From positions 1 through 23,198 of IMG/VR virus record IMGVR_UViG_3300025711_000237: a stretch of 23,198 nt of DNA; one strand, given 5' to 3'. The stretch comes from a virus. The notes below the pieces were generated by a model. That model was not told the origin of the DNA. It worked only from the letters and a program-made list of their open reading frames with translations, and ran no database searches. A program made the translations under genes and the position numbers. Of the stretch, positions 1,498-23,198 are shown in pieces. Position 1 is the stretch's first letter, and each line of letters opens with the position of its first letter.

Positions 1498-1543
1498 ACT
1501 GATATATTTGTCATTCCATTGAAAAGCTTAATTGAGGGTGAAA

Positions 1544-2635
1544 ATGATTTATTTCGAAGAAATCGGAGTTAAACGTTTGGTTGATAGGTATGTTAGAAAT
1601 CTTGAAGTACTAGTAAAATCTAATGAACCAGAAACTCCGGAGAAAAACGAAAGCTTTACGAGTACAAGAGATAAAGCGATATTACTAATTCTTAGGTCTA
1701 TACAAAATGCACCATCTGAGTGGGATGCATCATGCCCATTTAATATTCAACACATATCAGGGCATTTATCAACCGCATTGAGCGAGGACGCGTTTACTAA
1801 TGAAGGATTAGATGATGTGTTCTCTGTTCTTTTTAGGTTTTTGATGGAGAGATATATATCTACTCCAGATGAGTTCATATCGATATTTCAGAGTGTTAGA
1901 CACTTCGCCATAGCTAGGTCTAATGAGTTTTCTGCTGATGCCAAAGTACAGATTGAGTATGCCATTCGAGAAATGCCAATTGGATTGTTTAAAATGGTTA
2001 TGAATGGCGAAAGCATGCAAAGCATAAAAACGTTACATGCAACCATTGCCAATATTGATAATCTAAGAAAAGAATGGGATGCAGAACTTAAATTAAAAAC
2101 AGATGAAGTTAATGCATTGAGGGATGCATTAGATAAACAAACCATTGCTTTTAACTTCGTTGGATTGTACGAAGGGTTTAATACATTAAGCAATATCAAA
2201 CGATTGGAAATTTTCCGGTCTAGAATATTGGTTGGGTTTTTGGCAATGCTGGTTATATCCCCTTTATTGTTCGAGATCTATAGATTTATCAAAGCAGACT
2301 CTAGTAATTTATCTTTAGTACATTATGCTTCAGTAATACCTATAATTTCAATTACAATCATATTCATTTATTTCTTTAGGATTTCCCTACAGTCGCTCAA
2401 CTCGTCAAAAGCGCAAAGAGACCAAATTGAGCTTAGAAAAACACTATGTACCTTCATTCAACACTATGTTAGATACTCTGCAGAAATTAAGAAAGATGAC
2501 CCTGATTCACTTACAAAATTTGAAAATATAATATTTTCAAATATTCTGCCTAATGGTAATGACATACCATCAGCTTATGATGGTATTGAGCAACTTGCAA
2601 AACTGATTACTAGTGTTAAGTCATCTAAGAGCTGA
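1544..2635 (+). CDS. Unrecognised two-TM membrane protein, insertion between V and S
   Basis: I do not recognise this 363-aa protein. The ATG at 1544 is chosen because GAGG (1534-1537) sits six bases before it; a TTG twelve bases earlier is in frame but lacks such a site. Visible layout: a soluble, mostly helical N-terminal part (about 1-155); a charged heptad-like helix (about 160-205, with LRKEWDAELKLKTDEVNALR); two hydrophobic segments (about 228-249 and 259-279) separated by a short loop; and a polar C-terminal tail of about 85 residues. It is strongly AT-rich and lies on the opposite strand to the late operon around it. P2 carries the non-essential orf30 in this gap. The site and codon use suggest a horizontally acquired moron, perhaps an exclusion or effector protein; that role is inference only. 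Confidence 0.85.
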   Translation: MIYFEEIGVKRLVDRYVRNLEVLVKSNEPETPEKNESFTSTRDKAILLILRSIQNAPSEWDASCPFNIQHISGHLSTALSEDAFTNEGLDDVFSVLFRFLMERYISTPDEFISIFQSVRHFAIARSNEFSADAKVQIEYAIREMPIGLFKMVMNGESMQSIKTLHATIANIDNLRKEWDAELKLKTDEVNALRDALDKQTIAFNFVGLYEGFNTLSNIKRLEIFRSRILVGFLAMLVISPLLFEIYRFIKADSSNLSLVHYASVIPIISITIIFIYFFRISLQSLNSSKAQRDQIELRKTLCTFIQHYVRYSAEIKKDDPDSLTKFENIIFSNILPNGNDIPSAYDGIEQLAKLITSVKSSKS

Positions 2636-8355: not shown

Positions 8356-10119
8356 ATGAATACAACCCCGAGCCTCATCATTAGCGATCCAAGGCGGCAA
8401 GCGGCCCTGCTCTACTGGCAGGGTTTTTCCGTGCGCCAGATTGCGGAAACGCTGAACCAAAAAGCCCCGACCGTGCAGAGCTGGAAGAAGCGAGATGCAT
8501 GGGACGCCATTGCGCCCATTAGCCGCGTGGAAACCAGCATGGAAGCGCGGTTGATTCAACTCATCGTGAAAGACGCAAAAGACGGGAGGGACTTCAAAGA
8601 AATAGACCTGCTGGGCCGACAGATAGAACGCCTGGCGCGGGTGAACCGCTATAGCCAGTCTGGTAACGAGGCGGATCTCAATCCCAACGTGCGCAACCGC
8701 AATAAGGGCGAGCGCGCGCCGGTTGAAAAGAATCAGTTCAGCGAAGAAGCCGTGGAGAAGTTAAGCGAGATTTTCCTGGGGGAATCGTTCGGCTACCAAA
8801 TGGGCTGGCACAAGGCGGGACTTGAGCACCGTATCCGCAACATCCTCAAATCGCGCCAGATTGGCGCAACCTTTTACTTTGCCCGGGAGGCGCTGATTGA
8901 TGCGCTGACCACGGGCAGAAATCAGATTTTCCTCTCGGCCAGTAAGGCGCAGGCGCACGTCTTTAAAAACTACATCATAGACTTTGCGCGCCAGGTAGAC
9001 GTTGACCTGAAAGGCGACCCGATTGTGTTACCCAACGGGGCGCGCCTGATTTTTCTCGGCACCAACGTGCGCACGGCGCAAAGCTACACCGGCAACCTGT
9101 ATCTGGATGAATATTTCTGGATACCGAAGTTTCAGGAGCTGCGCAAAGTGGCCTCGGGCATGTCGCTGCACAAGAAATGGCGCACCACCTATTTCTCGAC
9201 GCCCTCCAGCCTGGCGCACAGCGCCTATCCGTTCTGGTCGGGGGAGCTGTTCAACAAGGGCCGCCGCGATAAATCGACCCGTATCGAACTGGATTTAACC
9301 CACAGCCACCTTGCAAAAGGCGTGCTGTGTGATGACGGGCAGTGGCGGCAGATCGTCACAGTTGAGGATGCACTAGCAGGCGGCTGTAACCTGTTCGACC
9401 TTAGCCAGCTGTCGATGGAATACAGTCCGGCAGAATACGACAACCTGCTGATGTGCGAATTCGTGGATGATGCCGCCTCGGTGTTCCCGTTCGCCGAGCT
9501 GCAGACCTGCATGGTGGACAGCCTGGAGGAGTGGCTCGACTTCAATCCTTACTCATTGCGGCCCTTCGATTACCGTCCGGTCTGGATTGGCTACGACCCG
9601 TCACACACCGGCGACAGCGCGGGCTGTGCGGTGATCGCGCCGCCGATGGTCAACGGCGGCAAGTTCCGCGTATTGGAGCGTCACCAGTGGCGCGGCATGG
9701 ACTTTGCCGCGCAGGCGAAATCCATTGAAGACCTCACTAAAAAATACAGCGTGGACTACATCGGCATCGACTCAACCGGCCTCGGCCAGGGCGTGTTTCA
9801 GTTGGTGCGCCAATTCTTTCCCGCCGTGCGTGAAATCAAATACTCCCCCGAAATCAAAACCGCCATGGTACTCAAAGCCAAAGACACCATTACCAGCGGA
9901 CGCCTCGAATACGACACCGGCAGCACGGACATTACCCAAAGCTTTATGGCGATCCGCAAAACCATGACCGCCAGCGGCAACCGCTCGACCTACGAAGCCA
10001 GCCGTAGCGAAGAAGCCAGCCACGCGGACGTCGCCTGGGCAATCATGCATGCCCTGTTAAACGAACCGCTTACCGCCGCAAGCGGCAACGACAGCCCGAA
10101 TATTTTGGAGTTTTACTGA
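8356..10119 (+). CDS. P: Terminase large (ATPase) subunit gpP
   Basis: P2 gpP is the packaging motor ATPase. The 587-aa protein starts with a helix-turn-helix-like segment (about 15-50; QGFSVRQIAETLNQ). Walker A-like KSRQIGAT is at about 165-172, Walker B LYLDE at 248-252, and the C-terminal nuclease-like domain has Asp residues at WIGYDPSHTGD (D414) and YIGIDSTG (D472). Length and order agree with P2. There is no strong ribosome-binding site. Its stop overlaps the Q start as TGATG. Confidence 0.96.
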   Translation: MNTTPSLIISDPRRQAALLYWQGFSVRQIAETLNQKAPTVQSWKKRDAWDAIAPISRVETSMEARLIQLIVKDAKDGRDFKEIDLLGRQIERLARVNRYSQSGNEADLNPNVRNRNKGERAPVEKNQFSEEAVEKLSEIFLGESFGYQMGWHKAGLEHRIRNILKSRQIGATFYFAREALIDALTTGRNQIFLSASKAQAHVFKNYIIDFARQVDVDLKGDPIVLPNGARLIFLGTNVRTAQSYTGNLYLDEYFWIPKFQELRKVASGMSLHKKWRTTYFSTPSSLAHSAYPFWSGELFNKGRRDKSTRIELDLTHSHLAKGVLCDDGQWRQIVTVEDALAGGCNLFDLSQLSMEYSPAEYDNLLMCEFVDDAASVFPFAELQTCMVDSLEEWLDFNPYSLRPFDYRPVWIGYDPSHTGDSAGCAVIAPPMVNGGKFRVLERHQWRGMDFAAQAKSIEDLTKKYSVDYIGIDSTGLGQGVFQLVRQFFPAVREIKYSPEIKTAMVLKAKDTITSGRLEYDTGSTDITQSFMAIRKTMTASGNRSTYEASRSEEASHADVAWAIMHALLNEPLTAASGNDSPNILEFY

Positions 10120-11138
10120 TGAGCAAGCGCAGGGGCCGCAAGGCATTAACGACACAAAAAACAGCCAGTCAGCCTGAACAGCAGGCGCAGGCGTTTACCT
10201 TTGGCGACCCGTCGCCGGTGATGGATAAGCGGGATATTCTGGATTACGTGGAGTGCATCGGAAACAGCCGCTGGTATGAGCCGCCGGTGAGCTTTGACGG
10301 ACTAGCCCGCAGCCTGCGCGCCGCCGTGCATCACAGCTCGCCGATTTACGTGAAGCGCAATATTTTAGCCTCGACGTTCATCCCGCACCCGCTGCTCAGT
10401 CAGCAGGAATTCAGCAAGTTTGCGCTGGATTACCTGGTGTTCGGGAATGCATTTCTGGAGCTACGTCGTAATGCGCTGGGCGAGCCACTGCGGCTGGAGA
10501 CATCACCGGCAAAATATACCCGCAGGGGAACGGAGGAGGGCGTTTACTGGTTTACGCAATACTGGAAAGAGGCGCACGAGTTTGAAAAAGACAGCGTGTT
10601 TCACCTTATCGAGCCGGACATTAATCAGGAGCTGTACGGCCTGCCAGAGTACCTCAGCGCGTTAAACAGCGCCTGGCTGAACGAGGCGGCGACGCTGTTT
10701 CGCCGCAAGTACTACCAGAACGGCGCGCACGCCGGATACATTCTCTACATGACCGACGCCGCGCAAAGCAGCAGTGACGTGGACAAAATGCGCCAGGCGA
10801 TGCGCGACACTAAAGGTCTGGGTAATTTTCGTAACCTGTTTATGTACGCACCCAACGGCAAAGCGGACGGCATCAAGATTTTGCCGCTTAGCGAAGTGGC
10901 CACGAAAGACGATTTTTTCAATATCAAAAAGGCCAGCCGCGATGACTTGTTAAGCGCGCACCGCGTGCCCCCACAGATGATGGGGATTATACCTGACAAT
11001 GCGGGCGGGTTCGGGGATATTGAAAAGGCGGCGCAGGTCTTTGTTAGGAATGAACTGACGCCATTGCAAGAAAGAATAAAGGAGTTAAACGATTGGATCG
11101 GAAAAGAAGTGATACTGTTTAGAGCATATTTTTTTTGA
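10119..11138 (+). CDS. Q: Portal protein gpQ
   Basis: P2 gpQ forms the dodecameric portal at the unique capsid vertex. The 339-aa protein is near the P2 length. Landmarks are FTFGDPSPVMDKRDILDYVE, YVKRNILASTFIPHP, GNAFLELRRN, YGLPEYLSALNSAWLNEAAT and PQMMGIIPDNAGGFGD. The last ~25 codons become AT-rich and the end (LFRAYFF) is where the accessory DNA begins, so the extreme C-terminus may have been rebuilt at that border. It is coupled to P. Confidence 0.95.
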   Translation: MSKRRGRKALTTQKTASQPEQQAQAFTFGDPSPVMDKRDILDYVECIGNSRWYEPPVSFDGLARSLRAAVHHSSPIYVKRNILASTFIPHPLLSQQEFSKFALDYLVFGNAFLELRRNALGEPLRLETSPAKYTRRGTEEGVYWFTQYWKEAHEFEKDSVFHLIEPDINQELYGLPEYLSALNSAWLNEAATLFRRKYYQNGAHAGYILYMTDAAQSSSDVDKMRQAMRDTKGLGNFRNLFMYAPNGKADGIKILPLSEVATKDDFFNIKKASRDDLLSAHRVPPQMMGIIPDNAGGFGDIEKAAQVFVRNELTPLQERIKELNDWIGKEVILFRAYFF

Positions 11139-11162
11139 CATGGCGGTGTAAGTATTGTTTTG

Positions 11163-11200
11163 AATAATAGTCACTGAACTCATAAGGCGTGACTATTATT
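11163..11200 (+). terminator. Terminator-like hairpin after Q
   Basis: A perfect 12-bp inverted repeat (AATAATAGTCAC, 11163-11174, and GTGACTATTATT, 11189-11200) encloses a 14-base loop and is followed by TTAATTTT on the plus strand. It would end P-Q transcription. It overlaps the last codons of the converging rloB gene, so it may also shield that gene from read-through. Confidence 0.7.
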
Positions 11201-11879
11201 TTAATTTTGCCTGTTTGCATTTTATGGCTTGTAAATATGTTACGAGCTCATGGATCTGTGTTGACGGGTTCTTTATTCCAGTGCTTTCACTGGCATCCAT
11301 AGCTCTCTTGCTGTTAGCTTTTGCAAATTCAAGTTGTCCAAGCAGTGAAGTAAATACGTTATTTTTCCCTTTCTCGTAATCAGGCATGTATGCCTTTAAT
11401 TCAGACAGTAATTGTTTTCCTGAACTATTATCGGGAAGGTTTTCATATGCTTTTGTTGTATAGCAAAAATGAAGCAAAAGCCAGTATTCAAAGCAAGGGA
11501 AAGAGGCAATGGCTGAAAACACTCCCTTTGGTTTGATATTGTAAACACTATTTATAGCCTCATCGAAATCAGTATGTGCATCTCTATCAATGACACAAAA
11601 AACCTTATCAAATGCGGAAGATTCATTTTGCGATTTTTTAAATAAATCCTTCGCAAAATTAACTACAGTTTTAGGGCTAGAACCTGATTCACCGCTAATT
11701 TCAATGTTGGTCATACTTAATTCATAATGTTTCCTTATCTCTTTAAAGTAATTAGGCTCAGTTTTCTCTCCTTCACAAACTATCAAAATCCTCTCATATG
11801 GGGCTATTCTTGCCTTCACTCGCGCAAGGTCACCGATTTTTTTTGCTTTTCTTTTATGAAATAAGTTATCAGAGCCCAC
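11196..11879 (-). CDS. rloB: RloB-like TOPRIM-type protein
   Basis: A 227-aa protein of the RloB family, found next to AAA ATPases in restriction and defence loci and related in motif layout to TOPRIM nucleases. The motifs visible are ILIVCEGEKTEPNYF (glutamates at 36, 38 and 41), then VFCVIDRDAH (D98, D100; the DxD), then SFPCFEYWLLLHF. It starts at GTG 11879 directly after the RloA stop, with GGAGG eight bases upstream, so both come from one leftward transcript. By analogy with Old, Gabija and PARIS-type systems the ATPase would sense and RloB would cut or block nucleic acid, but RloB activity is inferred here. AT-rich relative to phage structural genes. Confidence 0.88.
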   Translation of the reverse strand: MGSDNLFHKRKAKKIGDLARVKARIAPYERILIVCEGEKTEPNYFKEIRKHYELSMTNIEISGESGSSPKTVVNFAKDLFKKSQNESSAFDKVFCVIDRDAHTDFDEAINSVYNIKPKGVFSAIASFPCFEYWLLLHFCYTTKAYENLPDNSSGKQLLSELKAYMPDYEKGKNNVFTSLLGQLEFAKANSKRAMDASESTGIKNPSTQIHELVTYLQAIKCKQAKLK

Positions 11880-13148
11880 TTATAAAACCTCCAAATCCCC
11901 AATGAATGGTAATGCGCCATAACGACCTGAAAGATAAGAGATTTCTAGGTTTTCTCTTCCTTTTTTAGGACTAAAGCTAGATAATGGATAAATGATGGTT
12001 GCTTTATCTTCGAGCTTATCGCAAAACCAAATTTGATCACGCCTAAAAATATCTTGAGTTAGAATGGATGTCTCATGAGTTGTGAAAATAAGTTGTGCAT
12101 TATTAGGGTTTGTAGTTCTGCTATGAAATAACTTCACCAAAAAATGAACTAATTTAGGGTGTAAGTTATCATGTAACTCATCAATAAGTAGAACATTTCC
12201 TTTTTTCAATGAATGCAACCATGGGCCGGAGAAAGAGAATAACTTCCTTGTTCCATCTGATTCATCCTCAAATTCAAATGGAATTAATTCACCATTAACA
12301 TTTTTGTGTTGAGTTTTAATATCAAATACATCTTTGTCTTTCATATTTTTTGAAATTAACTCCCTTACATGCTCGGGCATGCTCTCAGGAAGACTTGATG
12401 GGTCAAACTTTTCTTTTTTAACTAAAATATCATCAATATCAATGTCAGCAGCTTTTAGGAAATTCAAGATCTCTAGTTTTTTCTCACTAGTACACAATCC
12501 TGCGCTATAATCATCGCTCCAGCCTGAAACGTTTGTAAACCTTAATTTAAGCTGGAACCAATCGTAAATAGGTTTCAGCTGGGCACTGTTAAGTTGAATC
12601 GCCGTAGAAAGGAATAAAGCATCGTCTCTTGTTGCTTTCATCCAAATATTTTTATCGCCGGTAAGAGCATTACCTAGGTCCCATTTATAACTATTTGAAC
12701 TGACATCCCAAACACGACTAAACCAACGTTGTGTTCTTCCTTTCGGATAAGCCATAAGCCATTCGTCATGAATTTTAGTCTTAGTGGCACTAAAACCATA
12801 TTGATACCGAACGCCATCGGCAATAAATACGATTTCAAACTCACTTGGTTCGTCCAACGAAACTGGATCTAACTTAAAGGGTTCGATATCAAATCTATCG
12901 GCTTCCTGATGATTAGACGCAGAAAAGGCAACGATGTCACTCATAGTTGCCATTGCTCTTAAAAAGTTAGATTTTCCCGCTGCATTAGGCCCATAGATGG
13001 CTGCAGAGCTCAAAAGCTCAAGTTTATTTGGATACTCTAGAGAGAATGTGTTCGTCCCTTTAAGTTCATCTCCCTTAGACGCACTCATAGAGAAGCTTTG
13101 CGTGCCCTTGATAGACCGGTAATTTGTAACCGAAAATTCAATCAACAT
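11880..13148 (-). CDS. rloA: RloA-like AAA (ABC/SMC-type) ATPase
   Basis: A 422-aa ATPase of the AAA_15/RloA group. From ATG 13148: N-terminal MLIEFSVTNYRSIKGTQSFS, typical of Old/RecF-like ATPases; Walker A IYGPNAAGKS (about 51-60); a signature-like ESDGTRKLFSF (about 296-306); Walker B VLLIDELHDNLHP (about 319-331); H-loop FTTHET (about 355-360). A TTG 17 codons upstream is open but unnecessary. It is followed without gap by rloB. It lies between cos and Q, a stretch that is short and gene-free in P2. Likely the sensor half of an abortive-infection or exclusion module. Confidence 0.9.
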   Translation of the reverse strand: MLIEFSVTNYRSIKGTQSFSMSASKGDELKGTNTFSLEYPNKLELLSSAAIYGPNAAGKSNFLRAMATMSDIVAFSASNHQEADRFDIEPFKLDPVSLDEPSEFEIVFIADGVRYQYGFSATKTKIHDEWLMAYPKGRTQRWFSRVWDVSSNSYKWDLGNALTGDKNIWMKATRDDALFLSTAIQLNSAQLKPIYDWFQLKLRFTNVSGWSDDYSAGLCTSEKKLEILNFLKAADIDIDDILVKKEKFDPSSLPESMPEHVRELISKNMKDKDVFDIKTQHKNVNGELIPFEFEDESDGTRKLFSFSGPWLHSLKKGNVLLIDELHDNLHPKLVHFLVKLFHSRTTNPNNAQLIFTTHETSILTQDIFRRDQIWFCDKLEDKATIIYPLSSFSPKKGRENLEISYLSGRYGALPFIGDLEVL

Positions 13149-13178
13149 AATGAAATCACTCAAATTAGGAAACTTAAG

Positions 13179-13200
13179 CTTGTGCTTAAAATAGCACAAG
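13179..13200. repeat. 8-bp inverted repeat in the rloA leader
   Basis: CTTGTGCT (13179-13186) and AGCACAAG (13193-13200) pair perfectly around a six-base A/T loop, about 30 bases before the rloA ATG. It could be an operator or an RNA hairpin in the 5' leader. There is no T-run, so it is not an obvious terminator. Confidence 0.6.
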
Positions 13201-13335
13201 ATATCATTTCACCTTTGTTTTTGGTTTTTATTGCCAAAATTAACAATGAAATGCATACATGCACCATAGCATATACAAAGATGGGGGAGCTGCAAGTATT
13301 TATCACCCAAATGCCCTTATATGCCTGAGCGCGCA

Positions 13336-13354
13336 ATACTTTCCCCGCCGCGCC
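13336..13354 (-). other. cos: Phage cos site (19-nt cohesive end region)
   Basis: Read on the minus strand the sequence is GGCGCGGCGGGGAAAGTAT and continues TGCGCGCT. The P2 cohesive end, as I recall it, is GGCGAGGCGGGGAAAGCAC followed by TGCGCGCT. That is 16 of 19 positions identical in the overhang and eight of eight beyond it. The orientation is also right: reading into the genome from this end one meets Q from its 3' side, as in P2. This is where gpM/gpP would cut. Exact nick positions are inferred from P2. Confidence 0.88.
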
Positions 13355-13811: not shown

Positions 13812-16031
13812 TTATTGATAAAAATCGCCCCAATCCGCAATAGCTTCATACTGAATAATCTCATCCCCGAACGTCATAAGTGCACCTCGGGTTAACGCCT
13901 CAAGCTGCCATTTCTCCGGCGAAATCCCCTTAGCAGCCAATTCATGCCGGATTTTTGGAATTCTGGCCCGTTCTGCCTCGGTTAGTCGGGCAGACGGGGC
14001 AACTTCACGGTACTTAAACGGGTTAACACTTCTTTGTTGACGACTCACCTGAGGCGAATCTTCCTTTACACGCGCCACAATCGCCCTCACGGCGGCAGTG
14101 TCAGTCCAGTCAATCACCGCATATTGGTCTCTAAAGAATGCCTCTGCGTGGCTCCCAGCCTCGCCAGCGTGGTTATTTGTTGCCGCTTTGCTTTCGAGCA
14201 ACCCACAGTTATTGACAGGACTCCGAGGCGCGCCAGAGGCGCTTTTTAAAGTCAAAAGCTCAACGTCAACGGCAGAAGAGACAATGCGCCACTGGGTTGT
14301 CCTGGTTTCAAATACGTTGGATTCACCTAAATGCGGGGCAAAGATGCCCACAACCTTTTTCACTTCCTCGTCATAGGCGTTTAGCTCATCTGCTGTGCGG
14401 CGGGCAACACGCACGGTCTGGCTTTCGCGTGGCGTATTGGCTCCGCCCTGGGCCTCAATGTAGGCGGCAAAATTTCCCGCGTCGGCTGCGGCGCGCACGG
14501 CTTCCACTTCCTCGTCGAAAGTCTCAGTCAGGTTGAGTGAACGGATGCGCCGGCACTCACGGTAAGCGCCCATTGCAGGCAGGCCGATTGAGTGAAATTG
14601 AGGGATACGCCAAGTTGCTGCCCATGCGGTCACAGCAGCGGCGGCATCGGAAAGTAGCTCGCCGGTTTCAAAGTCGCGATCCCCTTCCAACGCATAGCCA
14701 TCGATATTTTTAGCGATGTACTTTGCGATATAACCAGCAGCGCCGCCTTTGTTCATATGCTTGCAGTCGAAACGGTTCTTTGCGGCCCCGCGCTCGTCGC
14801 CGTCTTCTTTCATGGCGTATTTGCGCATGATGTCGATAATCTGCTGGCGCTGAGCGCGCTTGGCGAACAGCATCATGTGCCAGTGCGGCGTTGCATCATG
14901 GTGTGGCTCAACAACGCGCATGCCGTAAACTTTCAGGCCGTTGTCTTTAAAAGCGGTGCGGATTTTTGCCCAGACCTTGCATAGGTAGCGCTGGCCGTCT
15001 TTTGGCGTATAAGCCTCTTTATCCCAGTTATGATTAAACTGAACGCGTTTTTCAGCACCTACGGTGCGCGTCGGGTGATATTTTGATGGGGTGGTGATGG
15101 TAATGAACATGCCCACGTCGCCATTATCTGCGGCGTATTGCTCAGTAAAGGCGATGGTGTTCATTAGCTCCATGCGGCGGATCTCGGGATTCGAGATACT
15201 GGCCATTACCTTTTCAATCAGGCTGAAACGCTCGCCGGTTTCAGTATTTTCAAGCTCGCAGCTTTTCAGATATTCCAGATTAGACAGGCGGCGGGCTTTA
15301 ACTTCGCGGATTGCGTGGATACTGGCATAAGCCGACGCGGCCTTATCACGGCTCACCGAACCGATAGCAATTAGCAACGCTTCGCGCCACTGCGTGCGCT
15401 GGGCCTTGAATTTCCGCTCCCACCACTCCGCATTGACCAGGCGTGACAGACTGGCGATTGCCGAACGAGCATCCATTTTGCCTTTGCAATAACGCACCCA
15501 GTGCATCGGCTGCACGTTGAACGCACGCGCCATGCCTGCAATATGGCCGTATAACTCAGACTGCGTCCGGTTATCAAAAAGCACGGCGTTATCGCCCTCA
15601 TTTGCCGCGATCAGCGCTTCGCACTTTTCCTCATAGATCTGCATCAACTGTCCGGCCACGCGCATGCACAGGTTTTTTAACTCTTTGTCTTTCATGCCTG
15701 GCAGGCGGTTGTATTGGTCAGCCTCAGAGAGAAATAACAGGGAGGCGCCAGCGTCCATAAAGTGCGCGCTATTCACCGACTCGATGCGGGGCAGGATTGA
15801 CCGACCCAGCGTGAAAACGAGGTACTTATTTGCCGCGTGATTGCCCTTTTCTTTCAAAAGGTACTTGTGACGGCTCAGAAATTTTTCGGCCAATTCATAC
15901 GGCAAAGTTTTAACTTTCGCTAAAACGGCTTGCCCCTGATGGAATTCATCACGGGTAAGCGGTCTTTCCGGCCCTGCAATCGCAGGGCGCGGGGCGTTCC
16001 ACGGGTAAGCCCATTCAACAGCCTGGGTCAT
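13812..16031 (-). CDS. A: Rolling-circle replication endonuclease gpA
   Basis: P2 gpA nicks the phage origin and starts rolling-circle replication. The 739-aa protein has the HUH-type metal site PHWHMMLFAKR (about residues 380-390) and the paired catalytic tyrosines in YIAKYIAKNIDGY (about Y434 and Y438), equivalent to Y450 and Y454 of P2 gpA. The N-terminus (ERPLTRDEF, LPYELAEKFLSRH) is also family-typical. In P2 the origin lies inside A; I could not locate it by eye. The ATG at 16031 overlaps the stop of the zinc-finger gene (ATGA), so A is the last gene of the early operon. Confidence 0.95.
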   Translation of the reverse strand: MTQAVEWAYPWNAPRPAIAGPERPLTRDEFHQGQAVLAKVKTLPYELAEKFLSRHKYLLKEKGNHAANKYLVFTLGRSILPRIESVNSAHFMDAGASLLFLSEADQYNRLPGMKDKELKNLCMRVAGQLMQIYEEKCEALIAANEGDNAVLFDNRTQSELYGHIAGMARAFNVQPMHWVRYCKGKMDARSAIASLSRLVNAEWWERKFKAQRTQWREALLIAIGSVSRDKAASAYASIHAIREVKARRLSNLEYLKSCELENTETGERFSLIEKVMASISNPEIRRMELMNTIAFTEQYAADNGDVGMFITITTPSKYHPTRTVGAEKRVQFNHNWDKEAYTPKDGQRYLCKVWAKIRTAFKDNGLKVYGMRVVEPHHDATPHWHMMLFAKRAQRQQIIDIMRKYAMKEDGDERGAAKNRFDCKHMNKGGAAGYIAKYIAKNIDGYALEGDRDFETGELLSDAAAAVTAWAATWRIPQFHSIGLPAMGAYRECRRIRSLNLTETFDEEVEAVRAAADAGNFAAYIEAQGGANTPRESQTVRVARRTADELNAYDEEVKKVVGIFAPHLGESNVFETRTTQWRIVSSAVDVELLTLKSASGAPRSPVNNCGLLESKAATNNHAGEAGSHAEAFFRDQYAVIDWTDTAAVRAIVARVKEDSPQVSRQQRSVNPFKYREVAPSARLTEAERARIPKIRHELAAKGISPEKWQLEALTRGALMTFGDEIIQYEAIADWGDFYQ

Positions 16032-18115: not shown

Positions 18116-18964
18116 ATGCGTCTAGAAAATGCTGTGGCTTCCGATGTGCTTGAGAGAATCCTTTCCGCTTATGGGTTTACAATGCAGAAAGAGCTAAGTG
18201 ACAGGCTTGGAATAGCGAAGAGTAATGTTGCGAGCTGGTTACAGCGTGGGCAGGTACCGGGCAATGTTCTAGTGCAATGTGCGCTTGATACTGGTACGGA
18301 TGTTAACTGGTTAGTAACCGGTGAACTTGAAAATGCAAGCCAGAACATTTCCCAGCCTGAAACTACAGGCAAAGCGCTCTACGATGAAATTATGTCCAAC
18401 GGCGGCAAAGCTGTTTTGCGACGGATCATGGATGCTTATGGATTCACACTGCAAAAAGAACTTTGCCAACTTCTTGGCATATCTTCCGGTACAGTTAGTA
18501 CATGGGTAAGAAGGGAGTATTTTCCTGGTGACGTTGTCGTAGCATGCGCTTTAGAAACGGGCGTATCTCTGCGTTGGATTGCTACAGGTAAAGGCGAAGC
18601 AAAAAAAACCACTGCAGCAAGCCTGGAACAGGCATCTATTACTCTTCCTAAAATGCGTTTGGAATCGGGCCGACTCAAAGCGATTGGTAGTTGGTCTGCT
18701 GATCCGTCGATGTTTAATGCAACGTCTGTAAGTGCAGCTTATATCGAAGGAATTAAATACTCATGGTTAGTCGATTTATCACAAACAGAAATTGGCAATG
18801 GCCGATGGATTGTGATTGTCGATGGTTCATATGATGTTTATGACGTTGTGAGATTACCTGCTGGAAAAATTAGACTTGTAAATGCAAGCATTGAATTTGA
18901 ATGCTCCTTAACAGATATAGATGTTTATGGAACTGTGCTTTTTACATTTGAAAAACACTTATAA
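18116..18964 (+). CDS. CI-type repressor with two tandem DNA-binding domains
   Basis: A 282-aa repressor that should hold the prophage silent. Residues 11-70 (VLERILSAYGFTMQKELSDR...) and 100-159 (VLRRIMDAYGFTLQKELCQL...) are two copies of the 186 CI/Bac_CI_repr helix-turn-helix domain, identical at roughly half of 60 positions by my hand alignment, joined by a 30-residue linker. The remaining ~120 residues resemble the C-terminal oligomerisation domain. 186 CI itself is ~190 aa with one such domain, so the extra length is the duplication. The start at 18116 has only a weak ribosome-binding site. Faces away from the early operon. Confidence 0.9.
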   Translation: MRLENAVASDVLERILSAYGFTMQKELSDRLGIAKSNVASWLQRGQVPGNVLVQCALDTGTDVNWLVTGELENASQNISQPETTGKALYDEIMSNGGKAVLRRIMDAYGFTLQKELCQLLGISSGTVSTWVRREYFPGDVVVACALETGVSLRWIATGKGEAKKTTAASLEQASITLPKMRLESGRLKAIGSWSADPSMFNATSVSAAYIEGIKYSWLVDLSQTEIGNGRWIVIVDGSYDVYDVVRLPAGKIRLVNASIEFECSLTDIDVYGTVLFTFEKHL

Positions 18965-19622: not shown

Positions 19623-19835
19623 TTACCCTGAATTGCTCCCAGAAAGAACCTCTGTAGCCATTTTACCGCCACTTTTGGCAGGCATTTTTGCACCCAAAAT
19701 CGATAACGGATTATTGGTTAAGGCATCTTCTAAATGGTCAGGGGCAAAGTGGGCATAGCGCATCGTTACGCGGATATCCGAGTGGCCGAGAATGCGTTGC
19801 AGCACGACAATAATGCCGCCGGACATCATAAAGTG
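19623..19835 (-). pseudogene. int: C-terminal stub of a P2/186-type tyrosine integrase
   Basis: The last 70 residues of an integrase: HFMMSGGIIVVLQRILGHSD then IRVTMRYAHFAPDHLEDALT. The H-loop and the nucleophile Tyr (MRYAHFAPDHL) are present, but everything before HFMM, including the first Arg of the catalytic set, is absent; upstream bases read as unrelated sequence. The orientation is opposite to that of a P2 integrase, which runs the same way as the repressor. So this is either a remnant of a second element or an inverted leftover. Confidence 0.85.
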
Positions 19836-19837
19836 GC

Positions 19838-20007
19838 GGTTTTTTATACCTAAGCTCAACGCATTCCCAATCCTCTTCATCTGGCAGAGACTTTGGAATG
19901 CGTGACCAAAGTTGCTCAGCTTCCCCTGCTTGCTCACTCTGCGGTGCCGTTTGGCAAAGAATAAACGTCCAATCCTGAGGCGTAACGCCACCCTTTGCTG
20001 ATGACAC
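19838..20007 (-). pseudogene. Unrecognised coding fragment joined to the integrase stub
   Basis: In a different frame from the integrase stub, the sequence reads GGVTPQDWTFILCQTAPQSE, then SRIPKSLPDEEDWECVELRY. The composition looks like real protein, and it breaks off where the integrase homology begins, so a deletion seems to have fused two genes. I do not recognise it. It could be chance. Confidence 0.3.
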
Positions 20008-20124
20008 CTAAGGACCATAAAGATTGGGTAAATTTCGAGACCGCTCTTAAGTCGTGGGCATTCACCATCGGCGAGTTAACCACCGGTTGGCTGCCGCTGT
20101 GTCAGGGATATATCGGTTCAAATC

Positions 20125-20843: not shown

Positions 20844-21165
20844 GCTTAAAAATCTCTCTGAAGACAGAGCGCTAATCGACTCTATGGTTACCTCCGAAAA
20901 TAAAACCGTTTTGATATAATCTGCACGCTATCTAAATCTTTTAACATTCTATTTAAAGCTATCAGAAATTCTCATTTCTAACCATCGAAAGAGCCGCTTT
21001 GACGTATGTCTCATCTGGTTTAAATCTCGACATATACGCAGGCAGATCACTAGGATTTTTTTCCGTTGATCGTTGCTATAAACGCTTGACCTTGACCCAA
21101 AATCCTGCTCCATTCAGAAACAGAATTCCGGCATGATATTGACTCCCCTGAACGGAGGGGGGCAG

Positions 21166-21441
21166 ATGAAAAAGTCACGATTCACCGAAGAGCAGATTGT
21201 CTTTGCTCTCAAGCATGCCGAGCTGGGTATCTCCGATGCCACGTTTTACACCTGGCGCAAGAAATACGGCGGAATTTCTCCTTCTGAACTCAAACATATG
21301 CGGCAGCTGGAAGAGGAAAATCTGCGGCTGAAGAGGCTGGTTGCTGACCTCAGCCTCGACAAGGCGATGCTGCAGGACGTGCTGGCAAAAAAGAACTGCC
21401 GATGGCAGCGCACTGCGCCTGCGTATCCGTGGGATCACTGA
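21166..21441 (+). pseudogene. IS3-family OrfA, internally deleted
   Basis: From ATG 21166 (GGAGGGGGG just upstream) the frame reads MKKSRFTEEQIVFALKHAEL then GISDATFYTWRKKYGG and a leucine-zipper-like LEEENLRLKRLVADLSLD, as in OrfA proteins of this group. About a dozen residues of the helix-turn-helix are missing between AEL and GISD. After KK the frame runs into OrfB sequence and stops at 21441. Confidence 0.82.
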
Positions 21442-21734
21442 AATGCGAATTCTGCTCTGAATTTACAGGAAAAATGCTGGACAGGTGGACGTATGAAAGA
21501 GGGGTAAGGATCGACTTCTCACGCCCAGGAACGCCGACGGACAATGCGACGGTGGAGTCCTTCAACGGCAGGTTAAGGCAGAAATGCCTGAACGATAGTG
21601 GGTTTATGTCTCTGGAGGATGCCCTCCGAATTTGCCGGTTTCCAGAATATGCAGCCAGAATGAAGCCGGTTATTCCTGAATATGGCTGGATCACATACGG
21701 GGAGCGGGTCAACAAGTTTCACATCTCATCTTAG
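21401..21734 (+). pseudogene. IS3-family OrfB (DDE transposase) fragments
   Basis: Two pieces. From 21401 one frame gives DGSALRLRIRGITEMR, an internal OrfB motif, then stops at 21460. From about 21445 another frame gives CSEFTGKMLDRWTYERGVRI, FSRPGTPTDNATVESFNGRL and MSLEDALR, the third quarter of a DDE domain with the Glu of VESFNG. The preceding DNGSEF is changed to EFCSEF, losing the Asp. The end after EDALR does not match the family. Confidence 0.82.
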
Positions 21735-21969
21735 TCATTAACGACATCTTACTTAGCGTGAAATATTGCTCTCTATAATAGCCTTAAAGCCTGTCCTATC
21801 ACCCCATCCTTGCGCTACATCAACATCCCAGATAATGAAATTAACTAAATTACTCCCCGCTGTTTATGCGTCGTGAGTCTGGGGCCAAATTCTTTTAATC
21901 CCGCTCCCATCAGCCCTAAGAAAAATAGCGACAAATTTTAATGCTGTTGAAAATATCTGGGTAAAAACA

Positions 21970-22293
21970 ATGTTTACGTTGTTCTATTTGTCCGTTGTTA
22001 TGGTATTTGAAATCACTCTAAGTACGGTTTGCCGACGAGGATATCTAAAATATTTAAAAATCTTCCATCGTTACCATTTCCGTTCTCTCCGCAAACCTCG
22101 TCAGCTACTCTTTATCCCGCACGGTCATCGTTGGGAAATTCTAAAACTTCAGCATTTAGGCGCGATGAGCCCATCAGGCAGAGCTTATCCTTCTACCTAC
22201 GTGATTGCCCGCTGTCAGGGATGCGGGGTCCGTAAGCACAAAGTCTTCTACAACAGCCATCTCAAGGTCTCTCAGTGCAGGCGTTGGTTATAG
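21970..22293 (+). CDS. Unrecognised Cys-rich ORF
   Basis: A 107-aa frame: hydrophobic N-terminus (MFTLFYLSVVMVFEITLSTV), then HGHRWEILKLQHLGAMSPSG, then CQGCG and a final C six residues from the end, perhaps a zinc ribbon. No good ribosome-binding site. A shorter start at the Met of GAMSPSG would keep the Cys part only. Not recognised; may be real or chance. The 235 bases before it and the 164 after it hold nothing I can name. Confidence 0.35.
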   Translation: MFTLFYLSVVMVFEITLSTVCRRGYLKYLKIFHRYHFRSLRKPRQLLFIPHGHRWEILKLQHLGAMSPSGRAYPSTYVIARCQGCGVRKHKVFYNSHLKVSQCRRWL

Positions 22294-22457
22294 GAGCAAG
22301 GCGCAATGTCTCTATTCTTATTACCTTAACATTCGTGCCTTAAATATCTGAGAGCTCTGAGTGTCGCGTTCAGTTTGACGAATAAATCTGTCATCTGATG
22401 GTCTTATTTTTTATCTATCTTTTATAAAAACATCCTCTCTTTCTTACGGAGAAGCTT

Positions 22458-22862
22458 ATGCAGCCGTACCAGGAATCACTATTTCCCGTCTCGATTAAGG
22501 GGATTGTGCAGATTAGCGACAAGATTCTGCTATTAAAAAACGAGCGGGAAGAGTGGGAGTTGCCGGGGGGAAAGCTCGAGAAAGGGGAAACGCCTGAAGA
22601 ATGTCTTATCCGTGAAATGTATGAGGAGACGCAGATAGCGTCGTCGGTGCAGGGCATTATCGACGCCTGGCTTTACCGGATTTGTGCTAAAGAAATATTG
22701 ATTGTGACCTATCTCATGAAGGTTGAACCGGCCTCAAGCCAAACGATAAAAGTCAGCCATGAGCATAAAGAAATAGGGATGTTTAGTCTGAATGAGATTG
22801 CAGAGCTCAATATGCCAATGGGGTACAAGACGTCGATAGGGCGAGTCATTAACCCAGTTTGA
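22458..22862 (+). CDS. Nudix hydrolase
   Basis: A 134-aa single-domain Nudix hydrolase. The Nudix box spans about residues 38-60: GKLEKGETPEECLIREMYEE followed by TQI, giving G-x5-E-x7-R-E-x-x-E-E with Gln where Gly is usual at the last-but-one position. WELPGG before it is the typical lead-in. Substrate cannot be told from sequence; the family hydrolyses nucleoside diphosphate-linked compounds. GGAG lies about six bases before ATG 22458. It stands alone, with a hairpin beyond its stop. Confidence 0.92.
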   Translation: MQPYQESLFPVSIKGIVQISDKILLLKNEREEWELPGGKLEKGETPEECLIREMYEETQIASSVQGIIDAWLYRICAKEILIVTYLMKVEPASSQTIKVSHEHKEIGMFSLNEIAELNMPMGYKTSIGRVINPV

Positions 22863-22905
22863 GAGCCTATAGGCAAAGGATGCAGCGACATACGCATAAT
22901 CTGAC

Positions 22906-22951
22906 CATCACAAGGCACATAAGGTATCGCGCCCTGTGATGAAGATTTTTT
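22906..22951 (+). terminator. Hairpin with T-run between converging genes
   Basis: CATCACAAGGC (22906-22916) pairs with GCCCTGTGATG (22931-22941) with one mismatch, then AAGATTTTTT. It fits a terminator for the Nudix gene and lies just past the stop of the converging YmgB/AriR-like gene. Confidence 0.55.
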
Positions 22952-23198
22952 AAATCAGGTCGTCCGGGGTACGAAATACTACTGTTTCGAGGGCGTTTCG
23001 ATAAATATCTGATTTGACCACGTCTGTTTCTATTTCTAATCGTTCGAGCAGTTTTGCCATGATTGCTTTGTTATTGACCAGTCGTCCTTTGAGGGAAAGT
23101 TCTATCTTTATTTCCTGAATGACGTCTGATTCGCTTTTAATGGCATGAGCAGTCTTGACGCGGGATTTTTCTAACTCAACGCTGTTTATTTGAGACAT
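22950..23198 (-). CDS. YmgB/AriR-family biofilm/acid-resistance regulator
   Basis: An 82-aa protein that resembles the YmgB/AriR family: helical, with ESDVIQEIKIELSLKGRLVN, then NKAIMAKLLERLEIETDVVK and a C-terminal LETVVFRTPDDLI close to the family end. E. coli AriR (YmgB) affects biofilm formation and acid resistance. The ATG is at the very last bases of the window, so a further upstream start cannot be excluded and the promoter is out of view. Confidence 0.85.
   Translation of the reverse strand: MSQINSVELEKSRVKTAHAIKSESDVIQEIKIELSLKGRLVNNKAIMAKLLERLEIETDVVKSDIYRNALETVVFRTPDDLI

What the first reader, a model, noticed from the sequence alone, without database searches (positions are those of the whole stretch)
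11196..13200. RloA/RloB ATPase-TOPRIM pair inserted between cos and Q of a P2-like prophage
The AAA ATPase (Walker A, signature, Walker B, H-loop all intact) and the RloB protein (E...DxD intact) are back to back in an AT-rich block at the virion left end, between the cos site and the 3' end of Q. In P2 the Old exclusion gene (ATPase and TOPRIM in one chain) lies on the other side of cos. So this phage seems to carry a split, Old-like defence module on the opposite flank of cos. Activity is inferred: I see motifs and place only.
Basis: partly seen in the sequence, partly recalled or inferred. Interest (0 to 1): 0.82.

Follow-up and report, generated by a model that had tools for sequence, protein, structure and literature searches.

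The report
AbiL defence pair in P2-like phage
A P2-like phage carries two adjacent genes, an ATPase and a predicted nuclease, that form a known kind of phage-defence pair (AbiL) in the usual defence-cargo slot of such phages, so the find is mostly ordinary; the one new detail is a conserved DNA palindrome in front of such pairs that appears to travel with them.

Summary
An ATPase gene and an RloB gene lie head to tail on the minus strand between cos and the 3' end of Q, with intact motifs. The ATPase should start at ATG 13148, not TTG 13199.

The pair is best filed as AbiL (PADLOC AbiLi E=2.8e-98, AbiLii E=3e-29; Pfam AAA_21 and RloB), not as a split P2 Old. The AbiLii model's top structural match is an OLD Toprim domain (Z 8.5), so 'works like OLD' is reasonable.

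The place is the published gpA-gpQ hotspot of P2-like phages. The cos-Q flank is not unusual: 9 of 14 described P2-like genomes I compared have 1.3-2.3 kb there; Erwinia phage ENT90 is the empty site. Five other P2-like genomes carry AbiL in this slot; close AbiL relatives lie on the Old side of cos, so the module has changed flank.

One addition: a 21-bp dyad, TTTTGRC-N7-GYCAAAA, precedes abiL in 19 of 27 non-redundant loci (0.27 expected), inside and outside P2-like phages (13219-13239 here). It suggests regulation carried with the module. Defence activity, nuclease target and trigger are untested. New member of a known kind.

The parts
11880..13148 (-). abiLi ('RloA'): ABC-type ATPase, 422 aa, ATG start
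   Evidence: Pfam AAA_21 3.5e-41, PADLOC AbiLi 2.8e-98; invariant Walker A/B, signature, H-loop; model pLDDT 89.8, Rad50/SMC/PtuA-type head
11196..11879 (-). abiLii (RloB): predicted Toprim-type nuclease, 227 aa, GTG start
   Evidence: Pfam RloB 1e-42, PADLOC AbiLii 3.1e-29; invariant E36, D98, D100; model pLDDT 83.8, best VIA match OLD Toprim 6nk8 Z 8.5
11888..11892 (-). GGAGG, likely ribosome-binding site of abiLii, inside the 3' end of abiLi
   Evidence: sequence
13219..13239 (.). 21-bp dyad TTTTGGC-N7-ACCAAAA (minus-strand reading), operator-like, 71-91 nt before the abiLi ATG
   Evidence: 1 mismatch to TTTTGRC-N7-GYCAAAA; same dyad before abiL in 19 of 27 non-redundant loci, 0.27 expected
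13179..13200 (.). perfect 8-bp inverted repeat CTTGTGCT-N6-AGCACAAG before abiLi; not seen in relatives
11162..11201 (+). hairpin with T-rich tail between convergent Q and abiLii, terminator-like
   Evidence: -13.4 kcal/mol, z -3.4
13336..13354 (-). cos core
   Evidence: P2-cos match with flanks; same place in ENT90, P2 and other P2-like genomes
10119..11138 (+). Q, portal; one border of the hotspot
   Evidence: PHROG portal 1.4e-171
13812..16031 (-). A, replication endonuclease; other border of the hotspot
   Evidence: Pfam Phage_GPA 5.8e-98
11084..13328 (.). stretch absent from ENT90, between Q and cos (cargo insert and borders)
   Evidence: DNA similarity to ENT90 stops at 11083 and resumes at 13329

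Best explanation
The pair is an AbiL-type defence operon carried as swappable cargo in the cos-proximal gpA-gpQ hotspot of a P2-like phage. Shown here: family, intact motifs, operon layout, slot, empty site in a relative, the same pair in the same slot in other P2-like phages. Inferred: AbiLi, an ABC-type ATPase, senses infection by other phages and controls the RloB/Toprim nuclease AbiLii; once released, AbiLii cuts nucleic acid and stops the cell or the invading phage, as AriA and AriB do in PARIS. RNA (tRNA) is my preferred target at low confidence; DNA is not excluded. The conserved upstream dyad suggests that the operon carries its own regulation.
For: PADLOC AbiLi/AbiLii and Pfam AAA_21/RloB; invariant catalytic motifs; the two genes abut and stay together in nearly all relatives; AbiLii model closest to OLD Toprim, AbiLi model to Rad50/SMC/PtuA heads; slot is a defence hotspot with tested systems (PMC9122126); empty site in ENT90; same slot in L002, L022, L028, L029, L035; AbiL is a lactococcal phage-resistance system, and RloB was linked to OLD Toprim by HHpred (PMC10440598).
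Against: No activity data for this pair. Fusobacterium AbiLii is toxic in E. coli but its AbiLi did not neutralise it, and lactococcal AbiLii was not toxic (PMC3985639), so the PARIS-like hold-and-release step is not established for AbiL. Foldseek alone found no significant match for AbiLii and Z 8.5 is only just above unrelated rows.
Confidence: 0.8

Rival explanations
1. A functional analogue of P2 Old split into two chains: a DNA nuclease that degrades invading phage DNA, for instance on sensing inhibition of host RecBCD.
For: ATPase plus Toprim, cargo of a P2-like phage next to cos as old is; OLD Toprim is the best structural match of AbiLii; AbiLi aligns with the Walker B/H-loop part of P2 Old.
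Against: AbiLii is RloB (PF13707), P2 Old is PF20469; profile comparison of AbiLii with Old found nothing, though that test was weak. Nothing here tells DNA from RNA.
Confidence: 0.25
2. A toxin-antitoxin pair that mainly keeps the prophage in its host, with phage defence secondary.
For: AAA/Toprim and RloB pairs lie in the type II toxin-antitoxin network (PMC10440598); the conserved dyad looks like a self-regulation operator; Fusobacterium AbiLii is toxic (PMC3985639).
Against: The slot is a defence hotspot (PMC9122126) and the AbiL prototype is a phage-resistance determinant; AbiLi of Fusobacterium gave no antitoxin effect.
Confidence: 0.15
3. Decayed or silent cargo without function.
For: The record is a fragment whose integrase is only a 131-aa remnant, with transposase fragments near the right end, so the prophage may be defective.
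Against: Both frames open, all motifs invariant, good ribosome-binding site for abiLii.
Confidence: 0.07

Closest known systems
AbiL (abiLi/abiLii), Lactococcus lactis plasmid system (Deng et al. 1999, as cited in PMC3985639)
   Same: Two-gene operon, AAA ATPase then RloB protein; PADLOC models for both hit
   Different: Phage-borne in a Gram-negative host, about 30% identity to the Lactococcus phage copy found; activity untested
AbiL pair of Klebsiella phage ST13-OXA48phi12.1 and E. coli ETEC4091 P2-like prophage
   Same: Same genes, order, orientation and slot between cos and Q
   Different: 58% (AbiLi) and 46% (AbiLii) identity; different phage genus
P2 Old (class 1 OLD nuclease)
   Same: ABC ATPase plus Toprim, cargo next to cos of a P2-like phage
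   Different: Single chain, Toprim family PF20469, on the A-cos side
PARIS (AriA/AriB)
   Same: Separate ABC ATPase and Toprim nuclease genes
   Different: Different Toprim family; AriB is a shown tRNase with known triggers (PMC12409363), AbiLii is not
Septu / retron PtuA
   Same: ATPase is among the nearest solved structures by sequence and fold
   Different: Partner there is an HNH nuclease (PtuB), here RloB

Membership tests
AbiL | AAA ATPase matching AbiLi | tested here: met
   PADLOC AbiLi 2.8e-98, far above AriA and others
AbiL | adjacent downstream RloB-domain protein matching AbiLii | tested here: met
   PADLOC AbiLii 3.1e-29, Pfam RloB 1e-42, genes abut
AbiL | intact ATPase and Toprim catalytic residues | tested here: met
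   invariant columns
AbiL | phage resistance | not testable with these tools
   needs plaque assays
OLD class 1 (P2 Old) | ATPase and Toprim in one chain | tested here: not met
   two separate genes with stop and start between
OLD class 1 (P2 Old) | OLD-like Toprim family PF20469 | tested here: not met
   AbiLii hits only RloB above cut-off; P2 Old hits PF20469
OLD class 1 (P2 Old) | Toprim fold | tested here: inconclusive
   OLD Toprim is the top VIA row (Z 8.5) but barely above unrelated rows; motif order E...DxD agrees
PARIS | AriB-type Toprim partner | tested here: not met
   no AriB family reported for the partner in PADLOC at E 0.1 or Pfam
P2-like gpA-gpQ defence hotspot | variable cargo between A and Q next to cos, absent or different in relatives | tested here: met
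   ENT90 empty site; different cargo in other phages

The most novel reading that the evidence does not exclude
AbiL operons carry their own operator: a 21-bp dyad TTTTGRC-N7-GYCAAAA, mostly 37-104 nt before abiLi, conserved in P2-like phages on either flank of cos, in other prophages and in chromosomes. The module would repress itself in a toxin-antitoxin manner through one of its two proteins, perhaps the conserved basic N-terminal tail of AbiLii, and derepress on infection.
Probability: 0.35. Interest if true: 0.5.

Novelty: new member of a known kind. Interest (0 to 1): 0.3.

Why it matters
It adds a clear AbiL example to the P2 defence hotspot and shows that both flanks of cos serve as cargo slots, with close AbiL relatives on either side. 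The conserved dyad, if bound by AbiL itself, would link AbiL to self-regulated toxin-antitoxin modules and gives a simple DNA-binding test of that idea.

Tried and rejected
Megablast of the block against E. coli genomes: no match; the pair is too diverged. phmmer of each protein against solved structures: nothing usable; the AbiLii profile returned designed helix bundles on its C-terminal helices, rejected as coiled-coil artefacts. hhalign of AbiLii against P2 Old: nothing, but with four near-identical Old sequences the test is weak. Rfam: no RNA at gathering score in the window. Sigma-70 scan: no more hits than in shuffles, uninformative. The dyad as a pattern in two whole genomes: at or below the control level, so no sign of a host regulon there. 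A one-frame AbiLi-AbiLii fusion in L010 was not used as evidence: the junction looks like a single-base frameshift in a metagenome-assembled contig. Held-out test of the dyad: three new loci of at least 58% identity score 11, 13 and 13; none of eleven more distant ones reaches 12, so the exact sequence is limited to the closer clade. Literature: no held paper found that describes AbiL in the P2 hotspot or an AbiL operator; most subscription papers and supplementary tables were out of reach.

Full report
What was claimed. An intact ATPase gene and RloB gene between cos and Q of a P2-like prophage, read as a split Old-like defence module on the opposite flank of cos.

Observation. The window is a virus record of 23198 bases (IMG/VR) with P2-like gene content and order: baseplate genes, a cargo gene, tail-completion and lysis genes, L, M, N and O on the minus strand, P and Q on the plus strand, then the pair, cos, A and the CII/CI region (some gene names by position in comparison with P2). 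The nearest described phage by DNA is Erwinia phage ENT90 (79% identity over 61% of the lysis-head block). RloB is at 11196-11879 and the ATPase at 11880-13148, both minus. I move the ATPase start from TTG 13199 to ATG 13148 because relatives align from there. The ATPase stop TAA is followed at once by the GTG of RloB, with GGAGG eight bases upstream inside the ATPase gene; this is typical of translational coupling, and co-transcription is inferred from it, not shown. A 13-pair hairpin with a T-rich tail lies where Q and abiLii converge. cos is at 13336-13354.

What it is. Pfam gives AAA_21 and RloB; PADLOC gives AbiLi (2.8e-98) and AbiLii (3e-29). Motif residues are invariant in alignments of 27 and 28 homologues. 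The AbiLi model (pLDDT 89.8) matches Rad50/SMC ATPase heads and PtuA of Septu and retrons (Foldseek E down to 6e-11, VIA Z 16-20). The AbiLii model (pLDDT 83.8) has the OLD Toprim domain 6nk8 as best VIA match (Z 8.5, 153 residues), with 6njv at Z 7.8 over 156 residues; Foldseek alone gave no significant hit and unrelated folds follow closely in Z. By eye, the motif order agrees with P2 Old: LLVEGKTE and DCD in Old, LIVCEGEKTE and DRD in AbiLii.

Where it is. Rousset and colleagues describe the cos-proximal gpA-gpQ region of E. coli P2-like phages as a hotspot with 1,650 gene arrangements, several shown to be defensive (PMC9122126). In ENT90 the cos-Q gap is 217 bp; in the window it is 2,214 bp at 37% GC, and DNA similarity to ENT90 stops at 11083 and resumes at 13329. 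I measured the gaps in 14 described P2-like genomes with a known or recognisable cos, P2 included: nine have 1.3-2.3 kb between cos and Q, holding AIPR proteins, a retron-type reverse transcriptase, a SEFIR/TIR protein, an HNH protein, AbiL and others. P2, with old and tin between A and cos and 187 bp between cos and Q, is one layout among several. The sample is hand-picked, not random.

AbiL on both sides of cos. AbiL lies between cos and Q in Klebsiella phage ST13-OXA48phi12.1 (L002), E. coli ETEC4091 (L022) and viral contigs L028/L063, L029/L064 and L035 (in L035 the contig ends before Q, but the pair lies beyond cos as seen from A). It lies between A and cos in L036, L037/L066 and L041. 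In a tree of 30 AbiLi proteins, L002/L022/L035 (cos-Q) and L036/L041/L066 (A-cos) form sister clades, each with 100/99 support, so the flank changed between close relatives; the window is a separate branch whose nearest rows are L063 and L064 (64% and 62% identity). AbiL also occurs in other prophages, chromosomes and plasmids.

The upstream dyad. Looking for operator-like repeats I noticed TTTTGAC-N7-GTCAAAA before several abiL operons. In 27 non-redundant upstreams (150 bp, under 75% identical), 19 have a site of at least 12/14 at spacer 7; shuffles give 0.27 on average and at most 2; spacers 3-6 and 9-12 give 0-2, and 8 gives 9, which I take to be largely the same sites shifted by one base. 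Stretches elsewhere in the same loci reach that score in 1.3%. The pattern was drawn from some of the tested loci, so the count is inflated; of held-out loci, two of three close ones pass and none of eleven distant ones. Symmetric changes occur (TTTTGGA/TCCAAAA in L072, TTTTGGT/ACCAAAA in L074, ATTTGAC/GTCAAAT in L031), as expected of a dimer's binding site. The dyad accompanies abiL in different neighbourhoods, so I infer that it is recognised by AbiL or by a widespread host factor; a pattern search of two genomes gave no sign of a regulon. The window's copy has one mismatch (13219-13239).

How it likely works. In PARIS the ATPase AriA holds the Toprim tRNase AriB and releases it on sensing a phage protein (PMC12409363). 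By analogy AbiLi would sense infection and control AbiLii. For AbiL itself this is not shown: Fusobacterium AbiLii is toxic but its AbiLi did not neutralise it, and lactococcal AbiLii was not toxic in E. coli (PMC3985639). Target and trigger are open.

Verdict. Observation confirmed; interpretation partly supported. It is a well-formed AbiL operon in a known hotspot: a new member of a known kind, of modest interest, with a conserved operator-like dyad as the one detail I found no report of in the papers held.

Noticed in passing
window 1532-2635 +: Second AT-rich cargo gene (367 aa, about 35% GC, PHROG 9373 of unknown function) between a baseplate gene and the tail-completion genes; relatives at 37-44% identity in Yersinia P2-like phages. 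Probably a second cargo slot.
   Followed up: partly
window 13179-13200: Perfect 8-bp inverted repeat CTTGTGCT-N6-AGCACAAG just before abiLi, not found before other abiL operons.
   Followed up: partly
window 18116-18964 +: CI-type repressor of 282 aa, about 90 residues longer than the ENT90 one, with weak hits to a further helix-turn-helix at residues 24-50.
   Followed up: no
window 19626-20018 - and 21133-23198: Only a 131-aa piece resembling an integrase, then IS3-type transposase fragments, a NUDIX gene and a YmgB/AriR gene: the prophage end may be defective or the record may run into host DNA.
   Followed up: no
L010:2409-4181: abiLi and abiLii in one open frame (590 aa) in a rumen proteobacterium contig; the junction looks like a single-base frameshift rather than a designed fusion.
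   Followed up: partly
L025 (CP100022.1, whole plasmid): A 4.7-kb E. coli plasmid carries a distant AbiLi-like ATPase (30% identity) followed by a short gene of unknown kind; similar small plasmids exist in Klebsiella and Salmonella.
   Followed up: no
window 11196-11879 -, residues 1-25 of AbiLii: Basic N-terminal tail (MGSDNLFHKRKAKK) strongly conserved among close relatives but predicted disordered: possible DNA- or partner-binding tail.
   Followed up: no
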